From Bacteroidia bacterium (GTDB taxonomy: Bacteria; Bacteroidota; Ignavibacteria; SZUA-365): a stretch of DNA of 64,000 bases. Below, in pieces: positions 2,073 to 6,824 of the stretch. Where the stretch lies: assembly GCA_027493955.1 (NCBI GenBank), contig JAOSJT010000001.1:2157131-2221130 (forward strand), read 5' to 3'. The position numbers were made by a program, and so were the translations under genes. Each line of letters starts with the position of its first letter. Position 1 is the stretch's first letter. The notes below the pieces were generated by a model. It saw only the letters and a list, made by a program, of their open reading frames with translations. It did no database searches and was not told the DNA's origin.

Positions 2073-3230
2073 CCAACCTCGTCATCCTGAGTGCGCCCAC
2101 CAGTCAGCCTCAGGATGACACCGGTCCATTTCGTGGATGACATCAGCTTTTTCGGGCATTCACAAGTACCGTCACCCTGAGTCATGTAACCAGTCCGCCC
2201 GGCGGACACCGGCTTATATTGAGTGTGACATTTGAAAAAATGTTAAAAAGTACCGTCATGCTGAGCGCAGCGCCGCAGGATGGGTGTAGGTTGAAAAACT
2301 ATGCTAACCCGGCGCGAAGTCGAAGCACGGCGTCCGTCCTATTCGGTGTTTACAAGTCCAGATCCAAAGTTGTCATGAGCAGCGTAGCACCCGCGGCAAA
2401 ATCTTGGTTTGAGGTACTCTCGTTTACGGGTGCGGAGTCGTCCTTCGACAGCCACCGGGCGATACTTGGTATGCGCAGCTAAATATTTCTGCGGTGGCTG
2501 CTCAGGAGGCCTGCGTCCGGTTTCTACGACTTTCGCAAGCACCGACTCCAAGATGTCATTAACAGTGCGCCCACCAGTCAGTCTCAGACTGATCAGCCTG
2601 AGGCTGACCTGGATGGCATGAGTATATGGCTCCGGGCTAACAAAGCTCGTCATGCTGAGGAGCCACCACGGCAGAATCTCAAGTAGATGCTCTGACGTAG
2701 TTCGGTGGCGTCTCGAAGCATGATTGGCTCCGTAACGCACGAGGAGACTAGGTACGTCCATGATATCATTAGAAGAGGCGAAGAATAAGAGGGGAATTTA
2801 ACGCAAAGGCGCAAAGGCGCAGAGTCGCAAAGAGGGAATTTGAATGGAATTAGCCAAATACCGTCGCCTCGCCGTGGCGTGGTGAGTTTACGAAATCAGG
2901 CGGATTAAACCGATTTCCAAAGATGTCATAAGAAGGAGCCGTCGCGAAATGAAGTCCGGTAATTGTGAAGTCTTTTATCGGCGGTATCTCGAAGGTCGAA
3001 GATAGAAGTTTCGCCGTGGCGGACTCGCCGCGGCGAGATGATTGGTTCCGCAACGCGCGAGGAGACTCGATTCCCTTCTTATTGGGATGAACAGCAATAT
3101 CGACCATCTGTATCCACTATATCCGCTTCTCTGGGTCTTCGCGTCTCTGCATTATTTTCTTCGACAACGCCCGTACAAACGCCAACCGCACACCACGAAT
3201 CCTCACCACCCCTTGAACCCATCCGCATCA
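2073..3230. repeat. Gene-free tract with REP-like inverted repeats
   Basis: No credible gene is seen in this ~1.2 kb. It is studded with variants of GTCATCCTGAG. The clearest is a perfect 11-bp inverted repeat, GTCATCCTGAG (2081-2091) against CTCAGGATGAC (2109-2119), separated by 17 bases. The string GTGCGCCCACCAGTCAG recurs near 2091 and near 2563, where it is followed by two mini-hairpins (CAGTC/GACTG and CAGCC/GGCTG). Further relatives lie near 2165, 2255 and 2648. An octameric stretch with units like CGCAAAGG occurs near 2800-2835. The small open frames here carry no recognisable domains. It looks like dispersed-repeat debris. Confidence 0.6.
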
Positions 3231-3463
3231 TAACCTTTCATTTGGTCGTAGTTTAACCTTTCATCTGGTGATAGCATATCCTTTCATTTGGCCGGAATTA
3301 GTATTCCTGCCGGATGAGGCTTTCTTTTCCAAAAAATAGGGAATACCGCTGGATTTTCAAGATTTTATGTTATTTCCCATGCAAATCCAACGCTGAAAAC
3401 GAGATTCTCGCCTGCGACATGAGCATAACCTTTCATTTGGCCGTACTATATCTTTTCATTTGG
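3231..3463. repeat. Iteron-like direct repeats with 23-bp phasing
   Basis: Five copies of a 15-base sequence close to TAACCTTTCATTTGG start at 3231, 3254, 3277, 3426 and 3449. Within each cluster the start-to-start distance is exactly 23 bases (15-base repeat plus 8-base variable spacer), so sites fall on nearly the same DNA face. The second cluster ends about 50 bases before the start of the downstream ATPase gene. They could be operator sites for that gene, or transposase-type binding sites from the end of a lost mobile element. No matching copies were seen downstream of the ATPase gene. Confidence 0.75.
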
Positions 3464-3513
3464 ACGAATTTTTCCTACCTTCTCACAGAACACAATTACC
3501 GGAGATGGTACGC

Positions 3514-4752
3514 ATGGTAGAGAAATATAGGCGCTTTGCAATGCACCGACTCGAGGAGGCGGCGAAGGATACTCCCGTCATCCTGATTCATGGTCCAAGG
3601 CAGTGCGGCAAGACCACTCTTGCTCAGCTTTTCGGAGAGGCGCCGTCTTACGAGTACATCACCTTCGACGACCTGGTACAACTCGATGGTGCAAGCAGCG
3701 ATCCTGTGGGCTTCGTTCGCAATCTGCCGGAACGCGTTATTCTCGACGAAATTCAGCGTGCCCCGCGGATTTTTCTGCCCCTGAAAGCTGCGGTGGATGC
3801 TGACCGAGGTCCCGGGAGGTTCATACTGACGGGATCCACCAACGTGCTGCTGCTCCCGAAACTCGCGGATTCTCTCGCGGGCAGACTGGAAATTTTGCGC
3901 TTGCATCCCCTGTCGCAGGAGGAGCTGGCGGGGAAGGAATCCGATTTTCTCGCGAAACTATTCTCCGCTTCTTTCCCTGGCGGACGCATCCCGCGCGCGG
4001 GATTGGACATTACAGAAAGGATCATCAGCGGAGGATACCCGGCGGCTCTGTCGCGTGAGAGTTTCCATCGGAAAGCCGCCTGGTATCATGAGTATATCGA
4101 AACGATCGTGCAACGGGACGTACGCGATCTTGCACGTATTGCTTCTCTGGATTCCCTGCCGCGCCTTTTGAGACTCGCCGCGAGTCAGACCTCGCGGATG
4201 GTGAATCTTGCAGATCTTGCTTCAGCGTTCCAATTCTCGCGACCAACACTCAAGGATTACATCCAGCTTCTCGAACGTGCATTTCTGATCGAGCAGCTTC
4301 CGCCATGGTCGAGCAACCGTATCAGCAGACTGATAAAATCATCGAAGCTCCACGTCACGGATACCGGCCTGGCGGCAGCATTGCTCGGAGCGGACGCCAA
4401 CACACTCCGCAAGGATCGGGCGCTTCTGGGACAGTTGCTCGAAACATTTGTCGTGCAGGAGTTGCGCAGACAGGCGAGTCGAGCCGACGGCAATGTGTCG
4501 TTCTATCACTTCAGGACCAAAGATGGCGTGGAGATCAATCTTGTCCTCGAAGCAGTCGGTTCCAATATCGCCGGCATCGAAATCAAGGCGTCGGCCACAG
4601 TAACCAAATCCGATTTCCGCGGCTTGACCAAACTCCGCAATGCGCACGGCGATCATTTCGCCTGCGGTGTTGTTCTCTACGACGGCGACAGCATCGTCAG
4701 CTTCGGCGACCGCCTCTTCGCCGTCCCTCTGCATGCCTTGTGGGAGCTGTAG
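3514..4752 (+). CDS. AAA ATPase with DUF4143 C-terminal domain
   Basis: A 412-residue P-loop protein of the ATP-binding/DUF4143 family. GGAGA at 3501-3505 lies eight bases before the ATG at 3514, which decides the start; ATG 3505 and a TTG at 3460 are weaker. The Walker A motif GPRQCGKT is at residues 27-34, a Walker B-like VILDEIQ near 75, and a TGST sensor-like motif near 110. The C-terminal half has the winged-helix-like segment seen in DUF4143 proteins and then FRTKDGVEINLVLE, resembling a nuclease-fold core. Proteins of this family are scattered among bacteria and archaea, often as isolated accessory genes, and their function is unsettled. The repeats directly upstream and the flanking debris suggest an acquired unit. 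Confidence 0.9.
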   Translation: MVEKYRRFAMHRLEEAAKDTPVILIHGPRQCGKTTLAQLFGEAPSYEYITFDDLVQLDGASSDPVGFVRNLPERVILDEIQRAPRIFLPLKAAVDADRGPGRFILTGSTNVLLLPKLADSLAGRLEILRLHPLSQEELAGKESDFLAKLFSASFPGGRIPRAGLDITERIISGGYPAALSRESFHRKAAWYHEYIETIVQRDVRDLARIASLDSLPRLLRLAASQTSRMVNLADLASAFQFSRPTLKDYIQLLERAFLIEQLPPWSSNRISRLIKSSKLHVTDTGLAAALLGADANTLRKDRALLGQLLETFVVQELRRQASRADGNVSFYHFRTKDGVEINLVLEAVGSNIAGIEIKASATVTKSDFRGLTKLRNAHGDHFACGVVLYDGDSIVSFGDRLFAVPLHALWEL

Positions 4753-6336: not shown

Positions 6337-6824
6337 AGCCCGAAGGGCGACACTTGGAGAGGTAAAGGGTGAAGGGTGAAGGGTGAAGAGCCCGAAGGGC
6401 GACACTTGGAGAGGTAAAGGGTGAAGGGTGAAGAGCCCGAAGGGCGACACTTCCTCTAACCCCCAACGTCAGTTGGGGGGCCACGCGCACAGCACAGCCT
6501 GGAGCAAGCCCGAAGGGCGACACTTGGAGAGGTAAAGGGTGAAGGGTGAAGGGTGAAGGGTGAAGGGTGAAGGGTGAAGGGTGAAGAGCCCGAAGGGCGA
6601 CACTTGGAGAGGTAAAGGGTGAAGGGTGAAGGGTGAAGAGCCCGAAGGGCGACACTTGGAGAGGTAAAGGGTGAAGGGTGAAGGGTGAAGAGCCCGAAGG
6701 GCGACACTTGGAGAGGTAAAGGGTGAAGGGTGAAGGGTGAAGAGCCCGAAGGGCGACACTTGGAGAGGTAAAGGGTTAAGGATGAAGGATGAAGAGCCCG
6801 AAGGGCGACACTTCCTGTACCACG
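6337..6824. repeat. Compound minisatellite (31-base core plus variable heptamers)
   Basis: A ~31-base core containing AGCCCGAAGGGCGACACTT, a GCCC-GAA-GGGC mini-hairpin, alternates with runs of the heptamer GGGTGAA. The runs hold 3 and 2 copies in the first block (6337-6453) and then 7, 3, 3, 3 and 3 in the second (6506-6824); the last run has drifted to GGATGAA. A typical period is 52 bases. Both blocks end with the core running into CTTCCT. They are separated by ~50 unique bases with a strong hairpin, CCCCCAAC/GTTGGGGG (6460-6479). The tract fills the gap between the divergent sdaA and T9SS-cargo genes. It has no stops in some minus-strand frames but is not protein-coding. Confidence 0.9.

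What the first reader, a model, noticed from the sequence alone, without database searches (positions are those of the whole stretch)
3231..3463. 23-bp-phased iterons in front of a DUF4143 ATPase
Five copies of a 15-base sequence fall into two clusters with exact 23-base periodicity. Regular phasing implies cooperative protein binding along one DNA face. Autoregulation of the ATPase gene, a remnant of a transposon end with multiple transposase sites, or a small replication origin are all possible. DUF4143 ATPases have no agreed function, so an associated DNA-binding array is a useful lead.
Basis: partly seen in the sequence, partly recalled or inferred. Interest (0 to 1): 0.55.

Follow-up and report, generated by a model that had tools for sequence, protein, structure and literature searches.

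The report
ATPase genes carry private repeat operators
A very common but never-studied bacterial ATPase–nuclease gene, tallied as an anti-virus gene, turns out to carry its own row of evenly spaced DNA tags just in front of it, and the protein parts that should touch DNA change in step with the tags, so the protein very probably reads its own address.

Summary
Confirmed: five same-strand copies of ACCTTTCATTTGG, in groups of three and two, exactly 23 bp apart, end 50 bp before an AAA_14–DUF4143 gene (ATG 3514) and form no array elsewhere in the 5.24-Mb genome.

It is one case of a family-wide rule. Of 226 homologue upstreams, 173 have their best self-match at lag 22, 23 or 44–46, against 18 of 155 upstreams of other genes in the same loci. 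Each homologue has its own motif, overlapping its promoter; array plus ORF often travel as one unit. Motif differences track the winged-helix recognition helix (5' half-site) and a hairpin of the C-terminal PD-(D/E)XK domain (3' half-site), not the ATPase domain: found in 65 loci, replicated in 25, but not cleanly in a wider, poorly registered set.

The protein is PADLOC PDC-S01, reported as the fourth most common prokaryotic 'defence system', function untested. AlphaFold gives a STAND/NLR-like core plus a McrC/Can2-like nuclease.

Best explanation: each ATPase binds and represses its own gene through a private phased operator. Transposon-end and origin readings are not supported. Binding and repression are inferred, not shown.

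The parts
3229..3251 (+). distal array, repeat unit 1 (core ACCTTTCATTTGG 3233-3245)
3252..3274 (+). distal array, repeat unit 2 (core 3256-3268)
3275..3297 (+). distal array, repeat unit 3 (core 3279-3291)
3292..3424 (.). segment between the two clusters (as searched; it overlaps the edges of units 3 and 4); single-copy in the genome, so no sign of a repeated insert
3424..3446 (+). proximal array, repeat unit 4 (core 3428-3440)
3447..3469 (+). proximal array, repeat unit 5 (core 3451-3463)
3514..4752 (+). AAA_14-DUF4143 ATPase (PADLOC PDC-S01), 412 aa; GGAG ribosome-binding-like site at 3501-3504; other in-frame starts ATG 3505 and TTG 3460
3514..4389 (+). aa 1-292: STAND/NB-ARC-like core (nucleotide-binding, helical and winged-helix domains)
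   Evidence: AlphaFold; VIA-align
4240..4278 (+). recognition helix aa 243-255; aa 242-244 (SRP) vary with the 5' half of the repeat
4402..4749 (+). aa 297-412: PD-(D/E)XK nuclease-fold domain, McrC/Can2-like; carries N342 where the homologues have the presumed metal-binding D
4498..4554 (+). aa 329-347 beta hairpin; varies with the 3' half of the repeat

Best explanation
The repeats are the private operator of the ATPase gene. The protein, a STAND-type ATPase whose winged-helix domain and C-terminal nuclease-fold domain both face DNA, binds each ~22/23-bp unit (recognition helix on the 5' half TTNCA, beta hairpin on the 3' half GNCG). Neighbouring copies assemble side by side over the promoter and start region and repress their own gene. 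Shown: the array, its family-wide conservation in place and period, its private sequence in each homologue, its co-variation with the two predicted DNA-reading parts, its overlap with the start region, its co-transfer with the ORF. Inferred: physical binding, repression, cooperative assembly, and control by ATP/ADP. The cellular role is presumably defence, as its PADLOC name says, but that is untested.
For: Lag spectrum: peaks only at 22, 23, 44 and 46 (82 of 104 upstreams against 119 of 1791 control segments). Later independent set: 67 of 78. All non-redundant upstreams: 173 of 226 against 18 of 155 upstreams of other ORFs; with the strict score >24/40, 135 of 226 against 1 of 155. Motif distance follows the wHTH (Mantel 0.469) more than the AAA domain (0.225); partial wHTH|AAA 0.43, AAA|wHTH -0.08 (65 loci). 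The 5' half peaks at aa 236-250, the 3' half at aa 320-342; replicated in 25 held-out loci. Residue rules fixed on the discovery set hold in 47 arrays outside it (identity >=40%): R/H243 with C5 25/26 against 2/21; P/V244 with T3 12/12 against 4/35; K244 with C4 5/5 against 5/42. Median distance from array end to start codon 21 bp, 162 arrays. TATAAT-like hexamers in the 15 bp after the array 28 of 162, against 8 and 7 in the next two 15-bp bins. Private operators inside one genome, G533: L126, L150 and L155 with three motifs. Shared unit runs from the array (median edge -71) to the stop codon (median -5) in 55 pairs.
Against: No binding or expression data exist. In the 97 arrays outside the discovery set, many with uncertain register, the window-by-window covariation was not clean (5' top window 272, 3' top window 188). 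Phylogenetically independent pairs are few; no single residue sign test reaches 0.05 in the median, although K244~C4, K244~C3, E244~G4 and Y332~T11 exceed all 207 ATPase-domain controls and three other rules do not. 53 of 226 upstreams lack the periodic signal, partly a distant clade with a single inverted repeat instead (17 of 45 above the 99th percentile of controls). Position alone does not tell a repressor from an activator.
Confidence: 0.77

Rival explanations
1. The array is the nuclease's own target or loading site: the ATPase assembles on it to nick or cut DNA that carries the array, for example competing copies of the same cassette, and transcriptional repression is secondary.
For: The PD-(D/E)XK residues D342, E356 and K358 are almost invariant (110/111, 107/111, 111/111); the domain resembles McrC, Can2, Card1, Cap4, Shedu and LmuA; array plus ORF moves as one unit between unrelated contexts.
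Against: A nuclease that cuts its own promoter would need restraint; the window protein has N342 yet keeps its array; the array sits on the promoter and start region, as expected of an operator.
Confidence: 0.12
2. The array is an operator read by a different host regulator, not by the ATPase.
For: No direct binding evidence exists; regulators of defence operons are often separate proteins (general knowledge, no call).
Against: The motif differs between paralogues of one genome and follows the ATPase's own wHTH and hairpin; array and ORF transfer without another gene.
Confidence: 0.08
3. The repeats are a remnant of a transposon end (IS21-, Tn7- or Mu-like).
For: Multiple short direct repeats beside an AAA ATPase look like such ends (recalled, no call).
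Against: No matching array downstream (1 of 142 same strand, 1 of 142 inverted); none of the three annotated plasmid neighbourhoods read shows a transposase gene; the fold is STAND-like with a nuclease domain.
Confidence: 0.02
4. Iterons of a small replication origin.
For: 22-23-bp direct repeats next to a wHTH/AAA protein resemble plasmid iterons (recalled, no call).
Against: Chromosomal, often several per genome; on plasmids found inside large replicons; array within about 20 bp of the start codon.
Confidence: 0.01

Closest known systems
PADLOC PDC-S01 (single-gene phage defence candidate; Pfam AAA_14 + DUF4143)
   Same: The window protein and the four other homologues tested hit PDLC04790 at E <= 1e-102. 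PMC12988326 (passages read) reports 29,494 bacterial and 9,986 archaeal copies, fourth most common across prokaryotes, ATPase fused to PD-(D/E)XK, experimental validation pending for most PDCs.
   Different: I saw no description of an upstream array or of DNA-reading parts: the one library paper that holds DUF4143 and the three that hold PDC-S01 were seen as listings, passages read for two of them.
STAND / NLR ATPases (CED-4, Apaf-1, RPP1, AVAST5; archaeal SSO1545 and PABY2304)
   Same: aa 1-292 superpose on the NBD-HD-WHD core: 2qen Z 15.4 (rmsd 4.7, 253 aligned), 2fna 14.3, RPP1 13.8, CED-4 12.6, AVAST5 filament 11.6.
   Different: Here the winged-helix domain still looks like a DNA reader: its recognition-helix residues vary with the operator. 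In the NLR and apoptosome proteins the WHD is not known to read DNA (recalled).
McrC / Can2 / Card1 defence nucleases (PD-(D/E)XK)
   Same: C-terminal domain alone: McrC Z 10.0 (109 aligned, rmsd 2.8), Can2 Z 10.0; conserved D342, E356, K358.
   Different: One hairpin of this domain also varies with the 3' half-site of the operator. Foldseek E-values for the domain alone are weak (best 1.4e-3).
Iteron operators of plasmid Rep proteins (recalled)
   Same: Short phased direct repeats in front of the gene of a wHTH protein that is presumed to bind them.
   Different: No replicon function seen; ATPase with a nuclease domain; spread over chromosomes of many phyla with a private motif in each homologue.

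Membership tests
PDC-S01 / DUF4143 ATPase | AAA_14 plus DUF4143 domains over the Pfam cut-offs and a PDC-S01 profile match | tested here: met
   Pfam 91.3 and 150.4 bits against cut-offs 27 and 28.1; PDLC04790 E 2.4e-161 over aa 3-411
PDC-S01 / DUF4143 ATPase | Anti-phage activity | not testable with these tools
   no experiment; the literature seen calls validation pending
STAND NTPase | NBD-HD-WHD core with Walker A and B | tested here: met
   K33, D78 and E79 invariant in 157 of 157; fold matches aa 1-292
STAND NTPase | Sensor domain and ligand-triggered oligomerisation | not testable with these tools
   no sensor repeat seen; the C-terminus is nuclease-like
PD-(D/E)XK nuclease | Core fold plus D, E-x-K residues | tested here: met
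   Family: D342 110/111, E356 107/111, K358 111/111 in the near set, fold. The window copy itself lacks D342 (it has N).
Autoregulated operator array | Phased repeats at the promoter of the gene, found only there in the genome | tested here: met
   own genome; family
Autoregulated operator array | Binding by the gene product and effect on transcription | not testable with these tools
   covariation only
IS21/Tn7/Mu-type transposon end | Matching terminal repeats at both ends | tested here: not met
   downstream pairs 1 of 142 same strand, 1 of 142 inverted
Iteron replication origin | Supports replication | not testable with these tools
   no replicon context; several chromosomal copies

The most novel reading that the evidence does not exclude
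One of the most widespread prokaryotic 'defence genes' is a self-addressed cassette: a minimal NLR-like ATPase-nuclease whose winged-helix domain and nuclease domain jointly read a private 22/23-bp tag array in front of its own gene by a simple residue-to-base code. The array is not just an operator but the platform on which the protein assembles as a phased filament and is held inactive, to be released or triggered when invading DNA or a rival cassette disturbs it, so that self-recognition is the sensing principle.
Probability: 0.17. Interest if true: 0.95.

Novelty: new variant of a known kind. Interest (0 to 1): 0.84.

Why it matters
PDC-S01/DUF4143 is among the most counted prokaryotic defence candidates, yet in the passages seen nothing is said about how it works. 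A conserved operator with a readable protein-DNA code gives an immediate experimental handle (which DNA to give the protein, which residues to swap). It suggests that these genes control themselves and spread as array-plus-ORF cassettes, and it hints that the winged-helix domain of STAND ATPases can still act as a DNA reader. It also supplies a sequence-only test for whether a DUF4143 gene is intact and self-regulated.

Tried and rejected
Searching the exact window motif pair in 395 genomes of the phylum found it only in the window's own genome (1 of 395); this looked like 'no relatives' until homologues were found by protein and each proved to have its own motif.

Replication origin and transposon end: see rivals. 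An inverted-repeat test showed that a distant DUF4143 clade uses single inverted repeats instead (17 of 45). In the window's own genome, of the other copies in that test (L038, L040, L041, L042, L043) only L040 passes the control threshold.

The idea that the two clusters are one array split by a mobile insert found no support: segment 3292-3424 is single-copy.

Empty-site search on Agrobacterium and Rhizobium plasmids gave unit borders but no record with both flanks and no insert among the rows listed. A tRNA-like 3' tail of the rhizobial units was not called by ARAGORN.

Independent-pair tests were underpowered, and the covariation in the 97 arrays outside the discovery set was not clean. 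PWM placement without refitting fitted only 13 of 25 held-out arrays, and residue tests on those 13 were mostly not significant.

Dropped rows: L031, L033 and L036 (matches begin mid-gene); from protein or covariation sets also L080, L100 and L118 (cut or broken); duplicates L127, L129, L131, L201 and L219; L037, L130, L148 and L153 (broken or no upstream). The 25 held-out loci were chosen by me from the 56 loci scanned, because they showed the periodic signal or belonged to the near clade. Of 226 upstreams, 162 were kept as aligned arrays at a fit above 3 bits.

Full report
Observation. The window holds five same-strand copies of ACCTTTCATTTGG at 3233, 3256, 3279, 3428 and 3451. Spacing within each cluster is exactly 23 bp; the lag-23 self-match of 31/40 is unique in the 64-kb window, and the paired motif with up to 3 mismatches is found nowhere else in the 5.24-Mb genome. 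The 149-bp step between clusters is not a multiple of 23; the segment between them is single-copy. The array stops 50 bp before ATG 3514 of a 412-aa protein with AAA_14 and DUF4143 domains. The neighbouring genes checked are a thiamine-pyrophosphate enzyme part, a dihydroorotate-dehydrogenase-like gene and a serine dehydratase.

The exact motif is private, the arrangement is not. The exact motif pair occurs in 1 of 395 genomes of the phylum, the window's own. Protein search found matches in 50 of 100 relatives, and a scan of named genome contigs gave 80 loci from many phyla. Reading upstream of them showed phased repeats with different sequences. A lag test made this objective. Over lags 12-60 the upstream regions peak only at 22, 23, 44 and 46; the best lag falls in {22,23,44-46} for 82 of 104 upstreams against 119 of 1791 control segments. 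A later set from gamma-proteobacterial and actinobacterial genomes gave 67 of 78. In all 226 non-redundant upstreams the count is 173, against 18 of 155 upstreams of other ORFs in the same loci; with a strict score, 135 of 226 against 1 of 155.

Anatomy of the array. A common motif A-Y-T-T-N-C-A-A-T-T-N-G-N-C-G fits 65 of 104 upstreams, 39 with period 22 and 26 with period 23. In the larger set 162 of 226 align (83 with period 23, 79 with period 22; most have 2-4 copies), with a median of 21 bp from array end to start codon. TATAAT-like hexamers follow the array within 15 bp in 28 of 162, against 8 and 7 in the next two 15-bp bins, so the array overlaps or abuts the core promoter. There is no matching array downstream (1 of 142 on the same strand, 1 of 142 inverted). 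A more distant DUF4143 clade has single inverted repeats in the same place: 17 of 45 loci of identity below 36% exceed the 99th percentile of controls.

Protein and array change together. In 65 loci, motif distance correlates with distance in the winged-helix region (0.469) and the C-terminal region (0.461) more than with the ATPase domain (0.225); none of 2000 permutations reached these values, and the partial correlations are 0.43 for wHTH given AAA and -0.08 the other way. Split by half-site, the 5' half follows aa 236-250, the N-terminus of the recognition helix, and the 3' half follows aa 320-342, a hairpin of the C-terminal domain. Twenty-five held-out loci repeat this (top windows 242-256 and 326-340; ATPase windows near 0). 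The table of helices and motifs reads like a code: S-R-P-T with TT[T/G]CA, D-x-K-T with TTCCG, S-H-K-T with TCCCA, R-R-E-T with GGCA. Rules fixed there hold in 47 arrays outside the discovery set with identity of 40% or more: R/H243 with C5 in 25/26 against 2/21; P/V244 with T3 in 12/12 against 4/35; K244 with C4 in 5/5 against 5/42.

Limits of that evidence. The covariation is not clean in the full set of 97 arrays outside the discovery set (top windows 272 and 188), where register is often uncertain. On trees built without the reading parts the residues changed only a few times. In the tree of 162 sequences the motif base follows the residue in about 3.8 of 8 pairs and never opposes it for K244~C4, and 3.7 of 6 for E244~G4; K244~C4, K244~C3, E244~G4 and Y332~T11 exceed all 207 ATPase-domain control tests (mean 0.008, sd 0.093, max 0.33), three other rules do not, and no sign test has a median p below 0.05. 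PWM placement without refitting fitted 13 of 25 held-out arrays. Paralogues in one genome are a further natural control: in G533 three copies with helices SHVT, SYKT and DSKT carry TTTCAATCGG-, ACTTCTAATGG- and ATTCCGAATTGG-type arrays.

What the protein is. AlphaFold gives a confident model (pLDDT 94.8). aa 1-292 match STAND/NLR cores: 2qen Z 15.4, 2fna 14.3, RPP1 13.8, CED-4 12.6, AVAST5 11.6. The C-terminal domain alone (pLDDT 94.7) matches McrC and Can2 at Z 10.0, although its Foldseek E-values are weak. Walker residues K33, D78 and E79 are invariant in 157 of 157; D342, E356 and K358 are nearly invariant in the near set, and the window protein alone of 111 has N at 342, so its own nuclease activity is doubtful. 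PADLOC calls the family PDC-S01 (E 2.4e-161). PMC12988326 (passages read) describes PDC-S01 as fourth most common across prokaryotes, an ATPase fused to PD-(D/E)XK, with validation pending for most PDCs; PMC13356809 (passages read) counts it as the most frequent individual locus in rumen genomes. Library searches for DUF4143 and PDC-S01 returned 1 and 3 papers; I saw no mention of an upstream array, but only passages of two of them were read.

A travelling unit. Nucleotide similarity between relatives in different places runs from the array to the stop codon: 55 pairs at 72-98% identity have a median 5' edge at -71 and 3' edge at -5. An Agrobacterium pAt plasmid and Rhizobium pTiAB2/73 share only a 1.36-kb stretch from -79 to +25 at 92.6% identity, with unrelated flanks. 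Two copies within G136 (L010, L166) share -84 to -8 at 87%. Rhizobial units also carry a conserved ~90-bp tail. I found no mechanism of transfer and no record with an empty site.

Mechanism. Best reading: the ATPase reads its own array with recognition helix and hairpin, copies line up every 22-23 bp over the promoter, and the gene is repressed until the protein lets go, plausibly through its nucleotide state. Array, conservation, privacy, covariation and promoter overlap are shown; binding, repression and switching are inferred. That the array is the nuclease's assembly or target site is the main rival. Transposon-end and origin readings lack support.

Noticed in passing
window 4537-4539 (codon of aa 342): The window ATPase has N342 where 110 of 111 near homologues have the presumed metal-binding D; its nuclease domain may be inactive although the array is kept.
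   Followed up: partly
own genome C1:2016593-2017818 (L037): A second, frame-broken DUF4143 copy related to the window gene.
   Followed up: no
window 2720-2757 and 3036-3073: Two diverged copies of a ~38-bp intergenic sequence (GATTGGYTCCGYAACGCRCGAGGAGACT), read by eye.
   Followed up: no
window 6531-6813: Tandem repeats: GGTGAAG heptamers and a 52-bp unit repeated about five times at 98%.
   Followed up: no
L177-L182, the ~90 bp after the stop codon: Rhizobial units end in a conserved tail with a tRNA T-arm-like GGTTCGATTCC; ARAGORN calls no tRNA.
   Followed up: partly
upstream of L023-L026, L028, L029, L158, L162, L165, L173: A distant DUF4143 clade has a single ~33-44-bp inverted repeat, in some over a -35-like box, in place of direct repeats.
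   Followed up: partly
phage records H31-H41: Eleven gut phage contigs encode DUF4143 ATPases of 25-33% identity; their upstream regions were not read.
   Followed up: no
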